Of a DNA stretch of 64,000 nt, positions 7,016 to 18,344 are shown one piece after another (the stretch's first letter is position 1; the number at the start of each line of letters is the position of its first letter). The notes beneath the pieces were generated by a model. It ran no database searches. It was given only the letters and a program-made list of their open reading frames with translations, and was not told where the DNA came from. The position numbers and the translations under genes were made by a program. Source of the DNA: Brevibacterium limosum (GTDB lineage Bacteria > Actinomycetota > Actinomycetes > Actinomycetales > Brevibacteriaceae); contig NZ_CP050154.1 in NCBI RefSeq assembly GCF_011617705.1, positions 1,178,001 through 1,242,000 on the forward strand. The letters are read 5' to 3'.

Positions 7016-7663
7016 ATGACCAGCCGCACCGATGTCGCGAACATCATCGACCACACCCTGCTCAAGCCCGAAGCGACCCGCGCCGACGTCGATGCCCTCG
7101 TGGCGGAGGCGAAGGAGCTGGGCGTGCTCGCGATCTGCGTGTCACCGTCCATGCTGCCGATCACCGATCCGGGTGAGCTCGTCGTGGCGACCGTCGTCGG
7201 GTTCCCCTCCGGCCAGGTGAAGCCGGAGATCAAAGCCGCCGAGGCTGCTCAGGCCGTCGCCGACGGTGCTGCCGAAGTCGACATGGTCATCAACATCGGA
7301 CAGGCCGTCGCCGGGGACTTCGACGGACTCGAGGCCGATATCCGCGGCGTCGTCGAGGCCAGCGGGGACGCCCTCGTCAAGGTCATCATCGAATCGGCTG
7401 CGCTCAACGACGAGCAGATCGTCGAGGCCTGCCGCCGCTCGGAGGCCGCAGGAGCCGGATTCGTCAAGACGTCGACCGGTTTCCACCCGGCCGGAGGCGC
7501 CAGCGCTCATGCTGTGTCTCTCATGCGCGAGACCGTGGGCGACCGCCTGGGAGTGAAGGCCTCCGGCGGAATCCGCACCGCCGAAGCCGCCGAAGAGATG
7601 ATCGCTGCCGGCGCGTCCCGCCTGGGCCTCTCCGGCAGCGCCGCAATCCTCAACTCCCTCTAA
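7016..7663 (+). CDS. deoC: Deoxyribose-phosphate aldolase
   Basis: Class I aldolase cleaving deoxyribose-5-phosphate to glyceraldehyde-3-phosphate and acetaldehyde, ending deoxynucleoside catabolism. Visible signatures are [12 protein letters not shown] at the N-terminus, the VDMVINIG strand, KVIIESAAL, and the Schiff-base lysine in GFVKTSTGF followed by [13 protein letters not shown]. The chosen ATG at 7016 (215 aa) has TGGAGG 5 nt upstream and gives the normal family length; an in-frame ATG at 6941 would add 25 residues encoded by a repetitive TGCACG-rich stretch. Its TAA stop overlaps the start of a 64-nt perfect palindrome. Confidence 0.95.
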
Positions 7664-7725
7664 CTACTACCTGACGGCGGCCCTGCAACCTCGCGAGGTT
7701 GCAGGGCCGCCGTCAGGTAGTAGTT
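7662..7725 (+). repeat. Stop-codon palindromic repeat, copy 1 (probable bidirectional terminator)
   Basis: A 64-nt perfect palindrome of two 32-nt arms that begins inside the TAA stop of deoC. The core of each arm is CTACCTGACGGCGGCCCTGC. Two near-identical copies lie at 37090-37145 and 44739-44794, also directly after TAA stops. There is no T tract. Compared with the other copies, one base pair in the stem has changed on both sides (CCCTGCAACC versus CCCAGCAACC), which supports a folded or symmetric function. Confidence 0.9.
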
Positions 7726-7782
7726 GGGCATTATCTCTGCAATTATCAGTTCGAGATCCGCCACGCCGACTAGGCTGGAGAC

Positions 7783-8491
7783 ATGTTTGGAACCTGAGAA
7801 TGGCATGTTGACAGTCTGCGCATGAAAAACTTCAGGTGCTTTGATGAGCTGTCAATTGATTTTGACGAGGAACTCACCGTGGTGATCGGTAAGAACGGCA
7901 GTTTTAAGTCTTTTGTGCTTGATAGGTTGGCAATCATGTTGTCGACCGTGCTGACAAATTTCGATGGCCCCAACAGAGGCTTTCAGCTGTCTGACGCGCG
8001 AAAGGTTCCGGTGGATCTGGACTCCAAGGAAGCAGTAACTGAGATGAGCCAGCAATTTCCGGAGTCTTTGCATATCGATGAAGTCGACTCGCATCTTCAT
8101 CCGATGTGGCAACAGCAGATAGGACCCAAACTCAGACAGACGTTGCCTCGAGTGCAATTGATCGTCACAACTCACTTTCCACAGGTCCTGTCGACAGTGG
8201 ACGCATCGCGCATTCGGATTCTCGATGGCTCGACCGTCAGAGAAGCTGAGTTCTCAGAACGGCTTCGCAGCGACATCATTCTTAGCAGCGTCATGGTGAC
8301 CGATCCCGAACCAGCGATGGGCATCAATGCTACTTTACAAAGCTATGCGGAATTAGCTGACAATGGGGAAGGAGCCAGAGCCCGGCGGTTGAGCTCTGAC
8401 GAAGACTTGATTCCGAACTGGGAGGTTTTGCTTCCGTCCCTAAACTGGCTGAGGCCGATGCCATGATGGCGTTCGATGGTTTGGATGACTG
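7783..8491 (+). pseudogene. Decayed PtuA-like AAA ATPase (Septu-type defence)
   Basis: Remnant of an SMC/RecF-like AAA ATPase related to PtuA of Septu and retron-associated systems. Reading from ATG 7783 (GGAG upstream) the frame hits TGA after four codons, then resumes with RMKNFRCFDELSIDFDEELT. Walker A reads GKNGSFKS, with the final glycine lost. After about residue 85 the sequence jumps straight to the Walker B/D-loop region LHIDEVDSHLHPMWQQQ, so roughly 200 or more internal codons are missing. Near 8425 a frameshift moves the C-terminus (KLAEADAMMAFDGLDD) to another frame, ending at a TGA that overlaps the ATG of the next gene. Function is certainly lost; family assignment is from motif recognition. 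Confidence 0.75.
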
Positions 8492-8791
8492 ATGTTGAGA
8501 ATCCATCCGTCGCCACCGTCGAGAATATGTGCAGAGCTGAGGAACCAGAAGGTCGACTTTGCGGGGCTCAAAGGCTCTGATCAGATTGGGCGAACGCTGT
8601 GGGTCCAACAGCAGGGGCCTTGTGCCTACTATGAACGAGCTCTTCGTGATCCTGACCGCGATGACCACCAGACCAAGATCGAACACTTTCATACTCAGAA
8701 TGCTCTCGAGTGGACCGAATGCTGTGCCTACTGTAGTGGCGCGGCGTCGACGCTCGATGCCAGTACGACCTGGAAGAATCTGCTTCTAGTT

Positions 8792-9036
8792 CGTAAGGGG
8801 GGTGCCCCTATATTTATTGATAGGCCCTGAACGGGGTCTGGTCGCTGGTCCTGGTATGGCTGATTTGCCCTGTCATTGATGATCCGGGGGTGTTGCCGCC
8901 AGGAATCCAGGACATGCGTTGACTGCTGATAGGGACTCGGCCCAGCTTTGTCTGAGGTCTCGTCGTAACATGGGTGCCAGCATCGGGTGTCACGACATAC
9001 CTGCGACCATGGAACTGATGGTCGAGGAGGACTGTC
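8792..9036 (+). ncRNA. Candidate bridge-RNA region of the IS110 element
   Basis: The ~245-nt left end upstream of the transposase has no credible ORF. In IS110-group elements such as IS621 this region encodes the bridge RNA that pairs with target and donor DNA. The assignment here rests on position and length only. I did not resolve the internal loops or match guide segments to the flanking sequence. Confidence 0.4.
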
Positions 9037-10239
9037 ATGAACACCGAATACGACGTCTGGTTGGGGCTCGACGTCGGCAAGACCAGTCATCACGGTTGCG
9101 GACTGGGGCCCGCCGGTGAGCGGGTCTTCGACCACGAGCTCGCACAGGACGAGACTGCACTTCGTGACGTGATTACGAGTCTGCAAAATGAGTTCGGTCG
9201 TGTGCTCGTCGTCGTTGATCAGCCGAACACGATCGGGGCGCTACCCGTCGCGGTCGCCCGGGATTGCGGTGCCGATATCGCTTATCTGCCGGGGTTGGCG
9301 ATGCGCAAGGCTGCTGACTTGTATCCGGGGCAGGCGAAGACGGGTGCCAGGGACGCGTTCATCATCGCCGACACTGCGCGCACGATGCCACACACCTTGA
9401 GGTCGGTGGATCGGGAGTCGGATGTCTTGGCCAATCTCAATGTCTTAGCCGGCACGGACGAGGACCTCGCTCATGACATTACGCGAGCGATCAACCGTCT
9501 GAGGTCCTAACTGTTACAGATCCACTCGGCGCTGGAACGAGTCTTCAAGGGAACCGTGCTGACCAGGACAATCGTGTTGGACCTGTTGATTCGGTACCGA
9601 GGTCCGGCCGGCCTGCGCACAGCTGGGAAATCAGGGGTGAAGCGGTGGGCGCGTAACCATACCCGCAAGGACCCGTCGGTGCTGATCGATGCGATCTTCG
9701 ACTCTCTGGCCGAGCAGACGGTGACCGTGCCCGGCAGTCAGGCCTCGGAGCCGGTGGTGCCGCGGCATGCCGCCAGGATCAAGGCGTTGAAGGTTGAGCG
9801 GGGCGAGATCGAGGCAGAAGCTACTGAGTTGGCTGATTCGCTCCCTCTTCTTCAGGTCTTAACGTCCATGCCGGGAGTCGGCGTTAAGACCGCGTCCCAG
9901 ATCCTCCTGGCAGCCGGTGATTTCTCTGCGTTCAAGACCGTCGGTCATCTGGCTGCGTATGCCGGGATCGTGCCGGTGACGCGGAGGTCGGGAACATCGA
10001 TTCGGGGCGAGTTCCCGTCGCGGGCGGGCAACAAAAGGTTAAAGAACGCGTTGTTCCACTCAGCGTGGGTGGCATCGTGTCATGACCCGTTATCGAAGGC
10101 CTACTACGACTGGAAACGGGCCGAAGGCAAGCGTCACAATGCTGCGGTCATGTGTCTGGCTCGTCGCCGGCTCAATGTCCTGTTCGCGATGGTCAAGACA
10201 GGGGCCTTCTACGAGGAGAAGACCCCTGTTGCTGCTTGA
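9037..10239 (+). pseudogene. IS110-family transposase with in-frame stop
   Basis: DEDD-type recombinase of the IS110 family. The N-terminal RuvC-like part begins WLGLDVGKTSHH, and ARDAFIIADTAR carries a later acidic residue. The C-terminal transposase_20 part has LTSMPGVGVKTASQILLA, LAAYAGIVPVTRRSG and the SRAGNKRLKNALF serine region. A single TAA at 9508-9510 splits the 400-codon frame with no change of phase: upstream reads NRLRS, downstream LLQIHSALERVF. GAGGAGG precedes the ATG. The stop most simply means inactivation; readthrough cannot be excluded from sequence. Confidence 0.85.
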
Positions 10240-10526
10240 CAGTAAATGTAACGGGCTTCCGAGAAAGGGCGGGCCAACCACTTGCGATGCCTCGAAAGAT
10301 AACGAGGACATCTGCGCTCGGTTCCGCGATCCGAAAGTGTGGGAGTCGGCTGTGTTGGCAACAGTCAGCCGGTCCGGTCGATGTCGGTGCAGGGCTTCCG
10401 TGCGGTGCCAACGACGTGATCGACAGAGTCCTCAATCTCAACGATGAGCACTTGATCAGTGCTCGACGGACGATCATCGCGGCGGTCGGCGCAGAGGCGA
10501 ACAAGACCTAAGCGCGATAACACGGC

Positions 10527-10631
10527 CTGACACGTGCTGATCGGGAGACGATTGATTCCAAGCTGAGGGTGCAAGCTCAGGCGCTGGAGTTTGCAACGAC
10601 TCGCTTGTCGATCGCCGAACGCTTAAAATAA
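10527..10631 (+). other. Possible coding remnant after the defence genes
   Basis: A 34-codon stretch in one frame reads as an amphipathic helical segment (LTRADRETIDSKL, then ALEFATTRLSIAERLK) and ends at TAA 10629. It has no start codon or ribosome site of its own and follows the ptuB-like remnant by 15 bp. It may be the tail of that gene in another frame or part of a lost neighbour. I do not recognise it. Confidence 0.25.
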
Positions 10632-10700
10632 TGGAACTGAGAAGTCCTGCACCTGGTTGAGAGGTTGCCTCGAGTACCGACGCCAGTACGCAACCGAAAT

Positions 10701-10732
10701 TGACCCAAGCTTAAGTCTTACTCCATGGGTCA
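10701..10732 (-). terminator. Candidate terminator of the rraA-like gene
   Basis: Inverted repeat TGACCCA (10701-10707) / TGGGTCA (10726-10732) starting 2 nt beyond the stop of the minus-strand gene, with an 18-nt loop, followed in the minus direction by ATTTC. The stem is short, so this is only a candidate. Confidence 0.35.
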
Positions 10733-10734
10733 GT

Positions 10735-11238
10735 TCATGCTGGCTCTTCGAGGTCCGTCATCGTGGTGCCTTCCGGTAAGACCACGATGCCGTCGTTGTC
10801 GCTGACTAGTAGGCGGTTGGGCGTGAAGGTGGCACCGCCGAACGACAACGAAACGTTGCGCTCACCGTCACCGGATTTGAGACTGCGGCGAGGGTTGCTT
10901 CCAAGCGCTTTGACAGCGATGGGGATCTCGGCAAGTAAGTCAACATCGCGCACAGCGCCGTTGCAGATGAGTGCTGCCCATCCGTTTTCTGCGGCGACGG
11001 CAGCCATGTTATCGCCGAACATCGCCACATTCATAGAGCCTGCAGTGTCAATCACGAGCACGCGACCGTTACCAGCCTCGCGAATAATGGATTTGACCTG
11101 CATGTTGTCTTCGGAAGAACGGAAAGTGACGATTTCGCCGGCCACATGTGCGCGAGCCCCGAACTGGCGCAGCTGCAAGCTGCAACTCTCCAGCTGTTCA
11201 CCGTAGATATCGTATAAATCGGAAGTGCTCCGAAGCAT
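10735..11238 (-). CDS. RraA-like aldolase/decarboxylase family protein
   Basis: Member of the RraA / 4-hydroxy-4-methyl-2-oxoglutarate (HMG) aldolase family (167 aa), cytosolic. Family blocks seen are TSDLYDIYGEQLESC at the N-terminus, the EDNMQVKSIIREAGNGRVLVID stretch split by the usual turn, the GDNMAAVAAENGWAALICNG block, VRDVDLL with the Arg-Asp pair used for substrate and metal binding in the aldolases, and DNDGIVVLP. True RraA (RNase E inhibitor) is unlikely in this setting: beside a GntR regulator, dehydrogenases and a dicarboxylate-type transporter an enzymatic lyase or oxaloacetate-decarboxylase role fits better. AGGAG precedes the ATG. Confidence 0.8.
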   Translation of the reverse strand: MLRSTSDLYDIYGEQLESCSLQLRQFGARAHVAGEIVTFRSSEDNMQVKSIIREAGNGRVLVIDTAGSMNVAMFGDNMAAVAAENGWAALICNGAVRDVDLLAEIPIAVKALGSNPRRSLKSGDGERNVSLSFGGATFTPNRLLVSDNDGIVVLPEGTTMTDLEEPA

Positions 11239-11274
11239 GGTGACTCCTCTTCTATCGAGCTGAGAGTTAGCGGT

Positions 11275-11985
11275 TTAGATGCCTTCAAAGTCGTTTTCCT
11301 CGAGCGCCTTTAGGGCGCGAAGGACTAGTGATTCTGTCAGAGCTCTTGCCAAAGTCTCATTGCGTTCCAAATAGGCATCGTACAAAGATCGATGGTCCTG
11401 ATATGAGCGCGCTAGGCGGCCAGGAAGAGTAAGGCCGCGGCGTCGCACACGCAGTACACGTAGGCCTAATGAATCGATCATGTTGCCGACTAGAGGATTG
11501 TTACCCAGCTCCACCTCGCGCTGGCGGAAGCGTACGGATTGGCTAAAGTACATGTCCACATTTCCCTCCCCAGCAGCTGAACGCATGAGTTCCAAGGGGC
11601 CTTCGAGTGTTGTCAGGTCTTCGGTCGAAGCATGACGCACGATCTCTCGGGATACTAACGAATACAAAGTGGCCCGGACATGATAGAAGTCCCGAACTTC
11701 CTTGGGCGAGAGGCGGGAAACACGTGGCCTCACACGAGGACGGATTTCCACGAGTCCCTCACGAGATAGGACCGCTAAGGCTTCGCGCACAGGGGTGCGA
11801 CTTGTGTGGAAGCGTTTGCCCAGTTCTACGGAAGTGAGTTCGAAGCCGACTGGAATGGTGCCCTCGATGATTTCTAGTGCGAGCGTTGTGACGATGTTGC
11901 GTACCAGGTCACCCTGGTCGGTGAGGCTCTGCAGTTTGGGCAACACCTCATCAGTGAGCATCCGCGTGAATGTTGTAGCGGTCAT
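11275..11985 (-). CDS. GntR-family (FadR-type) transcriptional regulator
   Basis: DNA-binding regulator (236 aa). The winged helix spans roughly residues 35-90, with LGKRFHTSRTPVREALAVLS as recognition region followed by GLVEIRPRVRPRVSRLS. The remainder is an all-helical FCD-like effector domain (FYHVRATLYSLVSREIVRHA). It is transcribed divergently from the HD-Ldh-MFS-dehydrogenase operon and upstream of the rraA-like gene in the same direction. Palindromic sites in the shared intergenic region are its likely operators, and the inducer is probably the compound the operon degrades. Confidence 0.9.
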   Translation of the reverse strand: MTATTFTRMLTDEVLPKLQSLTDQGDLVRNIVTTLALEIIEGTIPVGFELTSVELGKRFHTSRTPVREALAVLSREGLVEIRPRVRPRVSRLSPKEVRDFYHVRATLYSLVSREIVRHASTEDLTTLEGPLELMRSAAGEGNVDMYFSQSVRFRQREVELGNNPLVGNMIDSLGLRVLRVRRRGLTLPGRLARSYQDHRSLYDAYLERNETLARALTESLVLRALKALEENDFEGI

Positions 11986-12042
11986 GGGCTCCTCTTCGCA
12001 GTCGGCCAGCGAACTCGATCATACATTAGCTGCTCAATACGC

Positions 12043-12120
12043 AAATGGCGACACTTAGGGGGTTGATGTAGCGCAAATCACGGTGTTTACTTGTTCATGT
12101 CGTCAAAGTGGCGACACTTT
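12043..12120. promoter_or_regulatory. Probable GntR operators in the divergent promoter
   Basis: TGGCGACACTT occurs at 12046-12056 and again at 12109-12119, 63 bp apart (about six helical turns). The second copy is a perfect inverted repeat, AAAGTG-GCGA-CACTTT (12105-12120); the first is an imperfect version. A -10-like TATGAT for gntR lies on the minus strand at 12018-12023, so site 1 covers its upstream promoter part, and site 2 lies just before the ribosome site of the rightward operon. Confidence 0.6.
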
Positions 12121-12138
12121 ATGCAAGGAGGGTCCACA

Positions 12139-12705
12139 TTGGAGAGGACCGAACGAGTGAAAATCGTCCGCGAGGCATTCCCGGAGGCTGAAGAAATCGA
12201 GGACGAAGCCCTTCAGCTGGTTGTCATTGAGATCTGGGCACGGGCTTGGGAAACCAGCGAGTGGGAGAAGCTCGAAGATTGCCCGAAGGGCATCGACCTG
12301 CCAGTTGTACATAACCTGATAATGCACTCTCGCGCCGTGGCGTCTTTTGCTATGAGCTTGTGCGACCAGCATCGCGCGTATAACGGTATCTCGATGAATC
12401 GCGACGACGTCATTGCCATCGCGTTGTTGCATGATGTCTGCAAACTCCACGAGTTCACTAAGACCGATGCAGGCTATGCAAAGTCGCGAATCGGCAACAT
12501 CTACCAGCACGGTTATCTCTCAGCGCATTGGGCACAAGAGGCCGGTCTGAGTGACGAGATCGTTCACGGGCTGATCTCCCACACGCCGCTCTCCGGCGTT
12601 GTTCCTCAGACTCAGGAGGCCGTGCTGGTGCACTACGCCGACTTCGCTGACACAGATGCCCTCCTCCTGGAAGCTGGTCTGACTCTTTTCTGTAAGCGCA
12701 AATAA
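12139..12705 (+). CDS. HD-domain hydrolase, function unknown
   Basis: Soluble HD-superfamily protein of 188 aa. The metal-binding pattern is visible: VHNLIMHSRAVASFAM (first His), IALLHDVCKLHEF (HD pair) and later His residues in HGYLSAHWAQEAGL and LISHTPL. I chose TTG 12139, which has AAGGAGGG 6 nt upstream; the frame is open further up but passes through the operator. As the first gene of a catabolic operon it may act on a phosphorylated or CoA intermediate, or be regulatory; nothing in the sequence decides this. Confidence 0.75.
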   Translation: MERTERVKIVREAFPEAEEIEDEALQLVVIEIWARAWETSEWEKLEDCPKGIDLPVVHNLIMHSRAVASFAMSLCDQHRAYNGISMNRDDVIAIALLHDVCKLHEFTKTDAGYAKSRIGNIYQHGYLSAHWAQEAGLSDEIVHGLISHTPLSGVVPQTQEAVLVHYADFADTDALLLEAGLTLFCKRK

Positions 12706-12718
12706 GGACTTCTCAAAC

Positions 12719-13834
12719 ATGATCATTTCTACCGAGCCCCTGGACAGCACCCTCACCGTCGATGCCCTGGAAACCTACATCACCCAGATATTTGAAAAGT
12801 TCGGGATGAGGAGCGCGGACGCCGCAATATTGGCCGAGTCACTCGTCGACGCCGACAGTCACGGCACCGCGACACATGGTTCTGCCCGAGTCACCTCTTA
12901 TACGCGTCAATTGGAAAGCGGCCAGGTAAAGGCCGCCCCGGACGAGTACATCGTCGCAGAAACACCTGGAGCGTTGTTGATTGATGCCGACGGTGCCTTC
13001 GGTGCTCCCGTTGGTATCCGAGCCGTCGAGATGGGAATGGAGCGCGCCAGAAGGCTTGGCGTTGCGCTGGTGGGCGTCAAAAATGTCGCCCACTTCGGTG
13101 CGGCTGGCTTTTACACCCGGTACGCCGCCGACCGGGGTTTCATTGCCTTGGCTATGAGTTCCAGTTCCGCTTCGGTAGTACCTTTCGGCGGCCGTGTTCC
13201 GCGAGTGGGCAACAGCCCCATGTCTTTTGCGGCCCCGGGAAGTGAACACCCCGAGTTGAATTTGGACTTTGCTCAGTCCATGGCCGCTCGTGGCAAAATC
13301 AAGCTTCTCAAAGACCGCGGTGAGCAGCTACCGGAGAACTGGGCAATCGACGCTGATGGCCGCCCGACAACTGACCCGGACGAGGCCCTTCGCGGTGCAG
13401 TACTGCCGAGCGGCGGACATAAGGGGTCTGCACTATCGCTCCTGGTGGAAATGCTCTCCTCAGGCCTGACCGGCGCACACCTGACTCAAGACATCAAACA
13501 TGCGGGTTTTACTGGTGTGGGCCAGACCGACGTGGACGCGGATGTAACAGTCGGCAACTTCTACCTGATCATTGATGCATCCGCGTTCGGAACGGGCGAC
13601 AGCGTCCGCTCGCGAGCCACTGCGATCGCTGAATACGTGCGCGAGTCCCCGGCCGCACCGGGCTTCGAGCGCGTGTTCGCTCCCGGCGACATCGAGCGCT
13701 CCCTACATGAGCGCGCCGTCGAACAAGGTATCTCTCTACGTCGCACGACTGCGGTCGAACTTGTCGAGGTGGGCGAACGCTTCGGCCTCGAGGTTCCTGC
13801 TGCACTGCATCTCCAGACGGAGGTCGGATCATGA
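12719..13834 (+). CDS. Ldh-family (malate/L-lactate/sulfolactate) dehydrogenase
   Basis: NAD(P)-dependent 2-hydroxyacid dehydrogenase of the Ldh_2 family (371 aa), distinct in fold from ordinary lactate dehydrogenases. Landmarks are the DADSHGTATHGSARV active-site segment near residue 45, GVALVGVKNVAHFGAAGFYT, and the C-terminal LPSGGHKGSALSLLVEML block. The family oxidises malate, L-lactate, ureidoglycolate, sulfolactate and similar acids, so the exact substrate cannot be read from sequence. The stop overlaps the ATG of the transporter gene by 4 bp, indicating coupled translation. Confidence 0.88.
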   Translation: MIISTEPLDSTLTVDALETYITQIFEKFGMRSADAAILAESLVDADSHGTATHGSARVTSYTRQLESGQVKAAPDEYIVAETPGALLIDADGAFGAPVGIRAVEMGMERARRLGVALVGVKNVAHFGAAGFYTRYAADRGFIALAMSSSSASVVPFGGRVPRVGNSPMSFAAPGSEHPELNLDFAQSMAARGKIKLLKDRGEQLPENWAIDADGRPTTDPDEALRGAVLPSGGHKGSALSLLVEMLSSGLTGAHLTQDIKHAGFTGVGQTDVDADVTVGNFYLIIDASAFGTGDSVRSRATAIAEYVRESPAAPGFERVFAPGDIERSLHERAVEQGISLRRTTAVELVEVGERFGLEVPAALHLQTEVGS

Positions 13835-15216
13835 ACACACACGCAAACACTAATCCTCTGGCTCCGGGCCGCGTGGATTTCGAGCACGATGAGTTGAGTC
13901 CGCGACAGCGTCGTCGGATGATCACAGCGGCAGCCGCCGGCAATTTTGTTGAATGGTACGACGCCGGAGTTTACGGAATCGCAGCCACCGTGATAGCGGA
14001 ACAGATGTTTCCAAATAGCCTAAACCCGACTTTCGCACTGCTGAATACTTACGCGCTCTTTGCCATCTCCTATATTCTGCGCCCGGCTGGTGGGTTGATC
14101 TTCGGCAACATTGCGGACCGCGTGGGCCGAAAACACGCCCTCACAATCACCATAATCATGACTAGCGTAGCTACGGGCCTCATCGGTCTGACCCCCGGGT
14201 TTGGCGCCATCGGGTGGGCGGCTCCTGCAATATTGCTGATCTTGCGGGTGGTCCAATCCATGGGTACAGGCGGAGAGTACTCGACCGCCATCAGTTTCGT
14301 GTACGAACACGGGCCCACAGGGCGCAAAGCTCGTTCAGTCGGTGTCATGACCTCCATGACCTTCGTTGGCTTCCTTGTGGGAGCGGGCCTATCCACATTG
14401 CTCACCCTGTTGCCAGGAGACGCGTATTCTACTTACGGCTGGCGGGTCCTTTTCCTTCTGGCTCTTCCCTTCGGCATGATCGGTCTCTATGTACGCAAGC
14501 GAACTGAGGAAGGTGCAGAATTTAAGCGTCTGCAGATCGAGCGCAACCGGAACGACGTGCACGCCACACCCGTTGCAGACACCTTTCGTTTGTATTGGAA
14601 GCGTGTCCTGAGCTTCACCGCCTTCCTGGGTATTTGGGCCGTGTTCTCCACAATGCTGACCAACTACCTACCCACCTTCCTGAAGAACAACCCGGATATG
14701 AGTTCCACTGAAGCTAACGGGGCCAACCTCGTAGCCAGTGCCGCGATCGTCGTGGTCATCTTCCTATACGCGCCGTTGGCGGACCGATTTGGTTTGCGGA
14801 CCACATTGATCGTGTCTATGGTCGCGGCGATCACTTTGACGATCCCCGGCTTTAGCGTGGCAAGTCACGGTGTGATTGGGGGCTTCATCGGTGCCATCAT
14901 CCTGGGCGGAACCAAGGGACTGCTGGCAGTGCCTATGTTGCTCTCATTGAGCCAACTCTTCCCAGCGAAAGTTCGAGTGACTGCGGGAGGTCTGTCGTAC
15001 AACTTGGCGCAATCCATCATCGGCGGGACCGCACCGTTCGTGGCTGTATGGCTGAATTCTTTCAGCGGTAAACCAACAACTTTCGCCATTTACGTGATGT
15101 TCTTCGCAGCGGTCACGCTGATCATCACCTTGATTTGCGGACGCCGTTGGATCGCAGAAACCGCAGAGATCTCTGGAGACGTAGGCGGTCTCAAGACTTT
15201 GAAGGAAAACGCATGA
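13831..15216 (+). CDS. MFS transporter, metabolite:H+ symporter (MHS) type
   Basis: Twelve-span proton symporter (461 aa) of the MHS branch of the MFS (KgtP/CitA/ProP/ShiA relatives), which import di- and tricarboxylates, betaines or shikimate. Signature segments are GNFVEWYDAGVYGI at the first span, RPAGGLIFGNIADRVGRKHA in loop 2-3 and RVVQSMGTGGEY in span 4. It is translationally coupled to both neighbours (4-bp overlaps), so it most likely imports the hydroxy acid processed by the two dehydrogenases. Confidence 0.9.
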   Translation: MNTHANTNPLAPGRVDFEHDELSPRQRRRMITAAAAGNFVEWYDAGVYGIAATVIAEQMFPNSLNPTFALLNTYALFAISYILRPAGGLIFGNIADRVGRKHALTITIIMTSVATGLIGLTPGFGAIGWAAPAILLILRVVQSMGTGGEYSTAISFVYEHGPTGRKARSVGVMTSMTFVGFLVGAGLSTLLTLLPGDAYSTYGWRVLFLLALPFGMIGLYVRKRTEEGAEFKRLQIERNRNDVHATPVADTFRLYWKRVLSFTAFLGIWAVFSTMLTNYLPTFLKNNPDMSSTEANGANLVASAAIVVVIFLYAPLADRFGLRTTLIVSMVAAITLTIPGFSVASHGVIGGFIGAIILGGTKGLLAVPMLLSLSQLFPAKVRVTAGGLSYNLAQSIIGGTAPFVAVWLNSFSGKPTTFAIYVMFFAAVTLIITLICGRRWIAETAEISGDVGGLKTLKENA

Positions 15217-16289
15217 ACGCGCGGAAGACTCTGGATATCGCTGTCCTGCCCGGTGACGGAATCGGGCCGGAGACCGTGGACGCCGCACTGGCCGTCGTGA
15301 CCGCTGCGCTAGTCAAATATGACGTTGCATGGGCACCCCGTCGCCTACCAATTGGCTTCGAGGCATTGCACGCAGTGGGCACCACCATGCCGGAGTCCTC
15401 CTTCGAGAGGGCCCGCGATGCGGATGGGGTGATACTTGGCCCTGTCTCTCACAACGAGTACCCAAGTGCAGACGAGGGAGGCGTCAACCCCTCCGGCACC
15501 CTGCGTAAGAGGTTGGATTTATACTCCAACGTACGCCCGGCCAAGACGGTAGGCGGCTTGCCCAGCCGTGTTCCCGGAACCATGGACCTAGTGATCGTTC
15601 GCGAGAACACCGAAGGGTTCTACGCTGACCGCACTATGTATGCTGGCACGGGAGAGTTTATGCCCACTCCGGACCTGGCCATGGCCATGCGTAAGGTAAC
15701 CCGTGCCGGTTCTGAGCGCATCGCCCGCTACGCCTTCGCACTGGCGCAGACACGACGCAAGAAGCTAACTGCAGTTCACAAGGCCAACGTGTTACGTATG
15801 TCTGACGGCCTGTTTTTGGACGTCATGCGAGGAGTTCGGGAAGAATTCCCCGAGGTGCAGTATGAGGAGCAACTAGTGGATGCTATGGCTGCCCTGCTTA
15901 TCCGTAAGGCGGATGACTTCGACGTTGTAGTCACGACTAACATGTTCGGCGACATCCTCTCCGATGAGGCTACGGAGATCAGTGGCGGCATAGGATTGGC
16001 AGCGTCGCTGAATGTGGGCGACGAACACGCCGTGGCACAAGCCCAACATGGTTCTGCCCCAACGCTGGCAAATCAGGACGTGGCCAACCCTTCCTCACTC
16101 ATCGGATCCGCGGCCATGCTATTGGAATGGATATCCGTGAAGTTCAACGACGAACGCTTGATGTCCGCCGCGGCGGACATCAAGCGGGCCGTCGAGGCTA
16201 TCGTGAAGAACCCGGCCACACGCACTAGGGATCTGGGCGGTGTGCTTGGGACGAGAGCCTTCACTCGGGCAGTGATTGAGCGTCTCTGA
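15213..16289 (+). CDS. Isocitrate/isopropylmalate-type decarboxylating dehydrogenase
   Basis: Beta-decarboxylating dehydrogenase family protein (358 aa) acting on a 2R-hydroxy diacid. Family motifs: AVLPGDGIGPETV at the N-terminus, VRENTEGFYAD, the lysine in TAVHKANVLRMSDGL, and the metal/NAD segment NMFGDILSDEATEISGGIG followed by HGSAPTLANQDVANP. The ATG 15213 overlaps the transporter stop and is preceded by GAAGGA. It is not the housekeeping leuB or icd by context; tartrate, methylmalate, homoisocitrate or an alkylmalate are possible substrates. It ends the operon at a strong hairpin. Confidence 0.88.
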   Translation: MNARKTLDIAVLPGDGIGPETVDAALAVVTAALVKYDVAWAPRRLPIGFEALHAVGTTMPESSFERARDADGVILGPVSHNEYPSADEGGVNPSGTLRKRLDLYSNVRPAKTVGGLPSRVPGTMDLVIVRENTEGFYADRTMYAGTGEFMPTPDLAMAMRKVTRAGSERIARYAFALAQTRRKKLTAVHKANVLRMSDGLFLDVMRGVREEFPEVQYEEQLVDAMAALLIRKADDFDVVVTTNMFGDILSDEATEISGGIGLAASLNVGDEHAVAQAQHGSAPTLANQDVANPSSLIGSAAMLLEWISVKFNDERLMSAAADIKRAVEAIVKNPATRTRDLGGVLGTRAFTRAVIERL

Positions 16290-16402
16290 CACAAAACCGG
16301 AATACATCAACAGTGCCGTTACTCCTCGGCAAGGGCAAAATAGACGTTCTCGATGCAGTGACGCACTGACGCCACGGGACCAAGGTGCCGGAACGGCCGC
16401 TC

Positions 16403-16444
16403 AGCTCAGGTGGCGACGGCTTGCAAGGCGTCGCCACCTGAGCT
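16403..16444. terminator. Bidirectional hairpin between convergent genes
   Basis: Perfect 16-bp stem (arms 16403-16418 and 16429-16444; core AGCTCAGGTGGCGACG) with a 10-nt loop that is itself palindromic (CTTGCAAG). It lies between the end of the catabolic operon and the convergent phosphosugar mutase gene, with no clear T run on either side. Confidence 0.8.
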
Positions 16445-16517
16445 CGGAGCACGACTGTTGACGTTCGTCGCCACACTACTTTTTTGTCCCGACATCCTGA
16501 GCGAAAAATTGGATTGG

Positions 16518-18344
16518 TCAGAGGCCGAAGAAGGCCTTGAGCTCGGTGGTGATCGAGGCCAGACGCTCCTTGAGTGCTGGTGTGAGTGAAGCACTCGCCG
16601 AGGTGGCCGACAAGCGCACTCCGGCGCTGGCCGCAGCACGTGCATCGGCCTCGGCCGCAGCCTGGAGTTCCGAGGGTTCGGCAACGACCTCGAGATAGCA
16701 CTTGAGCTTCGGCTCGGTGCCCGAAGGACGCACGATGACCCGCGAGTTCGACTCCGAGAGGAGCAGGATTCCATCGGTCGGCGGCAGCCCCCCATACCCT
16801 GCCGACAGGTCGTGGACCTCGGCGACCGGGGAGCCGGCAAGTGTGGCCGGAGGATTCTCGCGCAGCTTGGCCATCGCCGTGGCGATGAGGGAGACATCGT
16901 CGAGGCGGAAACTCAAGGGAGCGGTGGCGAAGTAGCCGTCGCGGCCCCGGATCCGGTCGAGCTCGGCCTCGATGCTGCTGTCCGCCGCCTTGAGACGCGA
17001 GGTCAGCGCTGCAAACGTCACGGCGGCAGAGATGCCGTCCTTATCGCGCACTGCAGCCGGGTCGACGCAGTAGCCGAGTGCCTCTTCGTAGCCGAAGACG
17101 AGTCCGGCCACGCGGGAGATCCATTTGAACCCGGTGAGCGTGTTCGCCGCAGCGAATCCGTGGCTGGCAGCCGCCGCCGCAAGACCGCGGGAGGACACGA
17201 TCGAGTTCGCGAACACCGGCGCAGTCGCTCCGTGCGCATGATGCGTACCATCGGCCAGTCGGTTCGCGGCATCCTCACCCAACAGCAGCCCCACCTCGTC
17301 GCCGGTCAGCTGACGGTAGCCGGTGGCTGCCGAGGCATCGGGGATGGCGGCGGAGAACCGGTCGGCATCCGGATCGTTGGCGATGATGAGTTCGGCTCCG
17401 ACCTCACGGGCCAGGGCGAACGACTCGTCGAGTGCCCCGGCCTCTTCCGGGTTCGGGAACGACACCGTCGGGAAGTCCGGGTCCGGGGCCTGCTGGGAAG
17501 CCACCGGGTGGAGGTTAGTGAAGCCGGTGCGGGTCAGCGCCGCCTCGGCGACTCCGGCACCGACGCCGTGCAGTGAGGTCAGCACGATCGAGAGATCCGC
17601 TTCGGCACTCACCCCCAGATCGTCGATGCGCGACAAGTAGTTCTCGACGATCGACTCGTCGAGGTGCTCCCACCCGGATTCGGCACGCGGCACCGATTCC
17701 ACGGATTCCACGGCCGCGATCTTCTCGGCGATGAGGGCATCGGCAGGGCTGACGATCTGAGCTCCGGCACCCGCCTCAGCCGCGGCCGGATCGGTTTCGA
17801 TTGCCTGCAGGGGCCGTTCGCCCAGGTAGACCTTGTAGCCGTTGTCGGTCGGTGGGTTGTGGCTGGCCGTGACCATGACACCGGCGTCTGCCTCGAGATG
17901 CGACAGCGCGAAGGCGAGCAGCGGGGTCGGCAGCTGCTCGGGCAGCTGGATCGCGACTCCACCGGCGGCGGTGATGACAGCGGCGGTGTCCGCGGCGAAC
18001 TCCGCGGACTTGTACCGGGCGTCGCACCCGATGACGACTTGGAACCCCTCACCGACGGTGTCGGCGAGGAACGCGGACAGCCCGGCGGCGGCACGGATGA
18101 CGACGGCCCGGTTCATCCGGTTCGGCCCTGCCGCGATCTCGCCGCGCAGACCGGCGGTGCCGAAGACGAGGGGGCCTGAGAACCGGTCCTCGAGGTCGGC
18201 GATCGCGGCCTCGTCGCCGCTCTCGGCCTCGGCGAGGATGTGCTCCAAGGAGATGGCCGTTTGCGGATCGGGGTCGTCGGCGATCCAGGCGCGGACGACC
18301 TCGGCGTCGAATCCATTCGTGAAGCGGTCGGCTACGCGGGTCAT
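16518..18344 (-). CDS. Alpha-D-phosphohexomutase family phosphosugar mutase
   Basis: Four-domain phosphosugar mutase of 608 aa. All catalytic elements are present: the phosphoserine loop TASHNPPTDNG, the Mg loop DPDADRFSAA, the sugar-specificity loop GYEEALGY and the phosphate loop RPSGTEPKLK. It lies 61 bp downstream of the purine nucleoside phosphorylase gene on the same strand, so its working substrate may be ribose-1-phosphate or deoxyribose-1-phosphate (phosphopentomutase activity known in this subgroup) as well as glucose- or mannose-phosphates. AAAGGA precedes the ATG. Confidence 0.9.
   Translation of the reverse strand: MTRVADRFTNGFDAEVVRAWIADDPDPQTAISLEHILAEAESGDEAAIADLEDRFSGPLVFGTAGLRGEIAAGPNRMNRAVVIRAAAGLSAFLADTVGEGFQVVIGCDARYKSAEFAADTAAVITAAGGVAIQLPEQLPTPLLAFALSHLEADAGVMVTASHNPPTDNGYKVYLGERPLQAIETDPAAAEAGAGAQIVSPADALIAEKIAAVESVESVPRAESGWEHLDESIVENYLSRIDDLGVSAEADLSIVLTSLHGVGAGVAEAALTRTGFTNLHPVASQQAPDPDFPTVSFPNPEEAGALDESFALAREVGAELIIANDPDADRFSAAIPDASAATGYRQLTGDEVGLLLGEDAANRLADGTHHAHGATAPVFANSIVSSRGLAAAAASHGFAAANTLTGFKWISRVAGLVFGYEEALGYCVDPAAVRDKDGISAAVTFAALTSRLKAADSSIEAELDRIRGRDGYFATAPLSFRLDDVSLIATAMAKLRENPPATLAGSPVAEVHDLSAGYGGLPPTDGILLLSESNSRVIVRPSGTEPKLKCYLEVVAEPSELQAAAEADARAAASAGVRLSATSASASLTPALKERLASITTELKAFFGL

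What the first reader, a model, noticed from the sequence alone, without database searches (positions are those of the whole stretch)
7783..10511. Fossil Septu-like defence operon (PtuA-PtuB) split by an IS110 element
An ATPase remnant and an HNH-protein remnant overlap by TGATG as in intact two-gene Septu systems. The ATPase has an early TGA, a mutated Walker A, a large internal deletion and a 3' frameshift; the HNH gene has a CAYC to CAYY change, a 3' frameshift and an IS110 insertion that can be removed on paper to restore the frame exactly (8791 joined to 10247). The number of independent hits suggests long relaxed selection.
Basis: partly seen in the sequence, partly recalled or inferred. 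Interest (0 to 1): 0.6.

Follow-up and report, generated by a model that had tools for sequence, protein, structure and literature searches.

The report
Dead Septu phage-defence genes
This is the wreck of an ordinary two-gene bacterial anti-phage system (Septu), broken by stop codons, frameshifts, a large deletion and a jumping gene, sitting in foreign DNA that close relatives lack; it is a clean example of defence-gene loss but not a new kind of system.

Summary
Window 7783-10631 carries the remnants of ptuA (ATPase) and ptuB (HNH nuclease), joined by a 1-nt TGATG overlap. Two intact Curtobacterium systems have the same overlap. The ATPase remnant scores PtuA1 at 3e-47 against 3e-15 for Gabija GajA, and groups with intact actinobacterial PtuA at 100/100 support.

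PtuA damage: a stop at codon 5, a changed Walker A, one in-frame deletion of about 205 codons that removes the ABC-signature region, a frameshift and a second stop. PtuB damage: CAYC to CAYY, an IS110 insertion, a frameshift and two stops. The IS110 transposase itself has a stop.

At sites invariant in seven intact relatives, the remnant has changed 11 of 62. Six of the intact proteins change 2-3 of about 64.

Corrections: ptuB ends near 10631, not 10511.

No PtuA/PtuB was found in 56 congeners. Close relatives have deoC and the phosphosugar mutase gene almost adjacent, so the 8.8-kb low-GC block was gained in this lineage. No RT lies beside it. Verdict: a decayed Septu type I system, ordinary.

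The parts
7783..8492 (+). ptuA (Septu ATPase) pseudogene, about 232 readable residues of about 441
   Evidence: PADLOC PtuA1 3e-47, Pfam AAA_15/AAA_21; tblastn with intact Curtobacterium PtuA covers N-term, C-term and frame-shifted tail; tree 100/100 with actinobacterial PtuA
7795..7797 (+). in-frame TGA at codon 5 of ptuA
   Evidence: sequence and tblastn alignment MFGT*EWHVD vs MAASGDWHVD
7888..7911 (+). degenerate Walker A (GKNGSFKS; invariant Gly before Lys replaced by Phe)
   Evidence: (G41F, T43S at invariant columns)
8065..8070 (+). junction of an in-frame deletion of about 205 codons (Curtobacterium PtuA residues ~96-300, including the ABC-signature region)
8373..8399 (+). frameshift, then TGA (8397-8399) in the shifted frame
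   Evidence: tblastn frame change 3 to 2 with all close relatives
8490..8494 (+). TGATG overlap of ptuA stop and ptuB start
   Evidence: same overlap in L080 and L083
8492..8800 (+). ptuB (HNH nuclease) pseudogene, 5' part; CAYC to CAYY at 8630-8632
   Evidence: PADLOC HNH_I-A 1.6e-9 and PtuB1 2.5e-8, TIGR02646 1.9e-4 and PtuB NF041761 6e-7, tblastn with Curtobacterium PtuB 1.9e-28
8798..10255 (+). IS110-family element (ends accurate to about 3 nt), transposase interrupted by TAA at 9508-9510
   Evidence: Pfam DEDD_Tnp_IS110 and Transposase_20, IS110 NF033542; ends from congener copies; single close copy in the genome
10256..10631 (+). ptuB pseudogene, 3' part: frameshift at about 10381-10391, TAA at 10509-10511 and 10518-10520, ancestral end near 10631
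   Evidence: tblastn with L080/L082/L083/L018 PtuB in frames 1 then 2
7726..16513 (.). lineage-specific low-GC block (57% vs 65-66% GC) between the deoC terminator palindrome and the phosphosugar mutase gene; holds the Septu remnant and an intact-looking RraA / GntR / HD / Ldh2 / MFS / IDH-like gene set
   Evidence: composition; empty site in congeners; block without extended match in 56 congeners; families

Best explanation
A Septu type I system (ptuA ATPase + ptuB HNH nuclease, no reverse transcriptase) of the actinobacterial branch was acquired by horizontal transfer, in or into a low-GC block between deoC and the phosphosugar mutase gene. It was later inactivated and has since decayed by point stops, frameshifts, a 205-codon deletion and an IS110 insertion. 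When intact it would have worked like characterised Septu: PtuA and PtuB form an ATPase-nuclease that, on phage infection, cuts nucleic acid (DNA or tRNA-Tyr in studied cases) and stops phage growth. In this genome it does nothing today. Shown: homology, gene order, lesions, absence from congeners, excess change at invariant sites. Inferred: the acquisition event, the former activity, and the order of lesions, which is unknown.
For: PtuA1 HMM 3e-47, next non-Septu defence families (GajA, AriA) about 1e-15. PtuB/HNH_I-A 1.6e-9, TIGR02646 and NF041761 PtuB. tblastn with intact Curtobacterium, Cryobacterium and Rhodococcus PtuA/PtuB recovers every piece in order. TGATG overlap shared with L080 and L083. 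Tree placement 100/100. 11/62 invariant sites changed vs 2-3 of about 64. Empty site in congeners and none of 56 with PtuA/PtuB. The only RT in the genome is group-II-intron-like and about 26 kb away.
Against: The PtuB piece alone scores weakly and best to the retron-associated HNH_I-A profile, but intact Curtobacterium and Rhodococcus PtuB do the same. A 214-aa ORF starting at ATG 7822 remains open, so expression of a truncated product is not excluded. Single-base frameshifts could in principle be sequencing errors; the insertion, the deletion and the several stops are much harder to explain that way.
Confidence: 0.95

Rival explanations
1. Remnant of a retron type I-A (Septu type II) module whose RT and msr-msd were lost, rather than plain Septu type I.
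For: Best PtuB-side profile is HNH_I-A; NCBIfam names are retron Ec78 PtuA/PtuB.
Against: The closest intact relatives (L080, L083) score the same way and are two-gene pairs by ORF layout. No RT lies beside the remnant: only 120 bp separate it from deoC. The genome's only RT hit is a group II intron maturase about 26 kb away. The flanks of L080 and L083 were not scanned for an RT.
Confidence: 0.04
2. A different ATPase-nuclease pair (OLD-TOPRIM, Gabija, RecF/SMC-like).
For: AAA_15/AAA_21, SMC_N and RecN also match through the shared P-loop and Walker B.
Against: Those scores are 30 or more orders of magnitude weaker than PtuA1; no TOPRIM hit was found; the partner is an HNH protein matching PtuB.
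Confidence: 0.005
3. The surviving 214-aa ATPase ORF (7822-8466) is retained for a new function.
For: The ORF is open and the deletion is in frame.
Against: Walker A is destroyed, the ABC-signature region is gone, the C-terminus is frame-shifted, and invariant sites are changing. No conspecific copies were available to test for purifying selection.
Confidence: 0.01

Closest known systems
Septu type I (ptuA + ptuB), Curtobacterium pusillum NZ_VDZH01000003.1 and Curtobacterium sp. NZ_JADKRX010000003.1 (L080, L083)
   Same: Both genes, order and TGATG overlap; identity to the remnant about 40-58% in the main PtuA stretches and about 32-50% in the PtuB stretches
   Different: Intact there; here broken by several stops, frameshifts, a 205-codon deletion and IS110
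Septu EcB88 / E. coli ATCC 25922 Septu (PMC13096335, PMC11555353)
   Same: PtuA ABC ATPase + PtuB HNH nuclease; both activities needed for defence
   Different: Not compared by sequence here; target of the actinobacterial branch untested; the remnant lacks the needed motifs or whole regions
Retron-Eco7 (Ec78), type I-A / Septu type II
   Same: Same effector families PtuA/PtuB
   Different: No RT or msr-msd found next to the remnant

Membership tests
Septu type I | PtuA: AAA_15/AAA_21 ATPase matching PtuA1 profiles | tested here: met
   3e-47 over the two surviving stretches; AAA_15 above gathering score
Septu type I | PtuB: HNH protein matching PtuB1/TIGR02646 | tested here: met
   Met through homologues: direct NCBIfam scores are below curated cut-offs and PADLOC scores are weak, but tblastn with intact PtuB reaches 1.9e-28 and is collinear on both sides of the IS
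Septu type I | ptuA directly followed by ptuB, same strand | tested here: met
   TGATG overlap at 8490-8494, as in L080 and L083
Septu type I | intact Walker A/B of PtuA and HNH of PtuB (needed for defence, PMC13096335) | tested here: not met
   Walker A GSFKS, ABC-signature region deleted, stops and frameshifts in both genes. So it is a dead derivative, not a working member
Septu type I | anti-phage activity | not testable with these tools
   needs plaque assays; expected absent
Retron I-A / Septu type II | adjacent reverse transcriptase and msr-msd | tested here: not met
   the only RT hit in the genome is a group II intron RT about 26 kb away; no Rfam hit in 7500-16700
OLD-TOPRIM / Gabija | OLD ATPase with TOPRIM nuclease | tested here: not met
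   GajA only 3e-15, best stretch the N-terminal P-loop part; no TOPRIM hit
IS110 family | DEDD transposase + C-terminal Transposase_20, long 5' non-coding end | tested here: met
   1e-40 and 2e-23; left non-coding end about 235 nt, ends conserved in congeners

The most novel reading that the evidence does not exclude
The truncated but still open 214-aa PtuA-derived ORF (ATG 7822) is expressed and has been kept as a non-catalytic regulator, for example a dominant-negative partner against incoming Septu or retron PtuAB, rather than being inert debris.
Probability: 0.01. Interest if true: 0.45.

Novelty: new member of a known kind. Interest (0 to 1): 0.15.

Why it matters
It is a well-resolved case of the loss half of defence-system turnover: gain in one lineage, then decay by several independent hits, while intact-looking catabolic genes persist in the same foreign block. 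It also points to an actinobacterial Septu branch (Curtobacterium, Cryobacterium, Rhodococcus, Corynebacterium, Patulibacter) as a source of intact relatives for tests. It does not change what is known about how Septu works.

Tried and rejected
An intact copy at the same site in congeners: none; empty site instead. OLD-TOPRIM/Gabija and RecN/SMC identities: far weaker. Retron origin: no RT next to it. Two separate internal deletions in PtuA, suggested by one alignment against Rhodococcus: rejected, because Curtobacterium PtuA aligns collinearly up to a single deletion. Rfam bridge-RNA or other RNA family in the island: no hit. deoC-mutase interval as a defence hotspot: in other congeners it is empty or carries unrelated genes that look metabolic or transposon-derived by reading the ORFs only; no defence pair was recognised, and no family search was run on them. 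The 2024 PtuAB structure paper was not held.

Full report
What is there. The window lies at 1178001-1242000 of a complete 4.25-Mb, one-contig genome. I take it from general knowledge to be an actinobacterium, probably Brevibacterium; the genus was not tested. Downstream of deoC (to 7663) and a 64-nt perfect palindrome (7662-7725) lie two broken genes on the + strand, an IS110 element inside the second, and a set of intact-looking genes (RraA-like, FCD-type GntR, HD, Ldh2-type dehydrogenase, metabolite/H+ symporter, isocitrate/isopropylmalate-type dehydrogenase). The next conserved gene is the phosphosugar mutase (16518-18344, - strand).

Identity of the ATPase. The open piece 7822-8466 scores PtuA1 (PADLOC PDLC00310) at 3e-47, followed by some twenty further PtuA1 profiles, with GajA only at 3e-15. 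Pfam gives AAA_15 and AAA_21 above their cut-offs, and NCBIfam gives retron Ec78 PtuA at 4e-37. A scan of 84,980 species genomes with an alignment of three intact PtuA returned actinobacterial proteins from Curtobacterium (two), Cryobacterium, Patulibacter and Corynebacterium (three) among its best 80. A Rhodococcus plasmid pair came from the plasmid search. In a 25-row tree the remnant falls in one 100/100 clade with Curtobacterium, Cryobacterium, Patulibacter, Rhodococcus and two of the Corynebacterium proteins; its exact place inside is unresolved, and the third Corynebacterium protein (L114) lies elsewhere.

Identity of the nuclease. The 5' piece alone scores weakly (HNH_I-A 1.6e-9, PtuB1 2.5e-8, NF041761 6e-7, TIGR02646 1.9e-4). 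With intact PtuB as query the evidence is strong: Curtobacterium PtuB matches 8492-8812 at 1.9e-28, and PtuB homology resumes after the IS in one frame to about 10384 and in the next frame from about 10389 to 10628. The intact Curtobacterium and Rhodococcus PtuB also score best to HNH_I-A and then PtuB1, so that profile does not by itself mean a retron.

Lesions. PtuA: TGA at codon 5 (7795-7797); Walker A GKNGSFKS, with the invariant Gly before Lys lost (7888-7911); one in-frame deletion of about 205 codons (Curtobacterium residues about 96-300), which removes the ABC-signature region; a frameshift at about 8373-8385; TGA at 8397-8399. An earlier alignment against Rhodococcus suggested two deletions, but collinear alignment with Curtobacterium shows one. 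PtuB: CAYC to CAYY (8630-8632), IS110, a frameshift at about 10381-10391, TAA at 10509-10511 and 10518-10520, ancestral end near 10631. The ptuA stop and ptuB start overlap as TGATG (8490-8494), exactly as in both Curtobacterium systems.

The IS110 element. The two transposase pieces match the IS110 DEDD and Transposase_20 domains and are separated by one in-frame TAA at 9508-9510. Congener copies, about 83-87% identical in DNA, show where homology stops: at the left at the G-run 8797-8802, at the right after ...AATGTAACGGG at about 10255. Because the inserted length is a multiple of three under either boundary, the statement that the frame is preserved survives; the exact join does not.

Relaxed selection. 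Among 62 columns covered by the remnant that are invariant in seven intact actinobacterial PtuA, 11 have changed. In leave-one-out controls six of the seven intact proteins change 2-3 of 64-65 such columns; one Corynebacterium MAG protein changes 9 of 71. PtuB hits in that MAG also switch frame, so it may be decaying or mis-assembled too.

Origin. None of 56 congeners has a PtuA or PtuB relative; the few PtuA hits at about 1e-3 are to 567-residue open frames that I take to be another family. In at least six congeners, including several with deoC 94-98% identical, deoC, the palindrome and the mutase gene are nearly adjacent; two close ones carry a small extra gene there. The block 10240-16520 has no extended match in the genus. 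Its GC is 57% (Septu part 52%, IS 60%) against 65-66% in the flanks. The block was therefore most likely gained in this lineage. Whether the Septu genes and the metabolic genes came together is not known; their different GC values allow separate events. The same interval holds different genes in more distant congeners, so it is a permissive site. I saw no sign that it is a defence hotspot, but the cargo there was read only by eye.

How it would have worked. Published Septu systems need the PtuA Walker motifs and the PtuB HNH motif, and Septu EcB88 cleaves tRNA-Tyr (PMC13096335). The E. coli ATCC 25922 Septu was reported to act on nicked DNA, and retron-Eco7 PtuAB depletes tRNA-Tyr (PMC11555353). 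By family, the ancestor here was an infection-triggered ATPase-nuclease; its target is unknown. PADLOC calls the RT-associated form Septu type II (PMC8565338). No RT lies beside this remnant, and the only RT hit in the genome is a group II intron maturase about 26 kb away.

Verdict. A pseudogenised Septu type I system: real, well identified, and ordinary as a kind. The order of lesions is unknown, and no conspecific genome was available.

Noticed in passing
window 7662-7725: A 64-nt perfect palindrome after deoC (core CTACCTGACGGCGGCCC) is part of a repeat family: 67 exact 17-nt half-sites in the genome, mostly as facing pairs with starts 39 nt apart, none for the reversed control pattern. It is also between deoC and the mutase gene in congeners. 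Terminator-like or REP-like; function not tested.
   Followed up: partly
window 8797-10255; L077-L079, L168-L170, L174, L179: IS110 elements related to this one fall into two groups whose terminal 15-20 nt look swapped and inverted: left CCCGTTACATTTATT and right CATAGGGACACCCC in one group are near reverse complements of the right AATGTAACGGG and left GGGGGGTGCCCCTATA ends in the other. This may bear on how IS110 ends are exchanged.
   Followed up: partly
L085 5339-6041: PtuB of a Corynebacterium MAG next to an open PtuA is hit in two frames (2 then 3), so it may be another decaying Septu copy or an assembly error.
   Followed up: no
window 16155-16186: A 32-nt perfect palindrome (CGCTTGATGTCCGCCGCGGCGGACATCAAGCG) lies inside the 3' part of the isocitrate/isopropylmalate-type dehydrogenase gene of the island.
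   Followed up: no
window 10735-16289: Lineage-specific catabolic-looking cluster (RraA-like, GntR/FCD, HD, Ldh2-type dehydrogenase, metabolite/H+ symporter, IDH-like) in the same low-GC block, open reading frames of normal length, no extended match in 56 congeners.
   Followed up: partly
genome C1:1159467-1160066 (about 18.5 kb before the window): Only reverse transcriptase hit in the genome, best match group II intron RT/maturase.
   Followed up: yes
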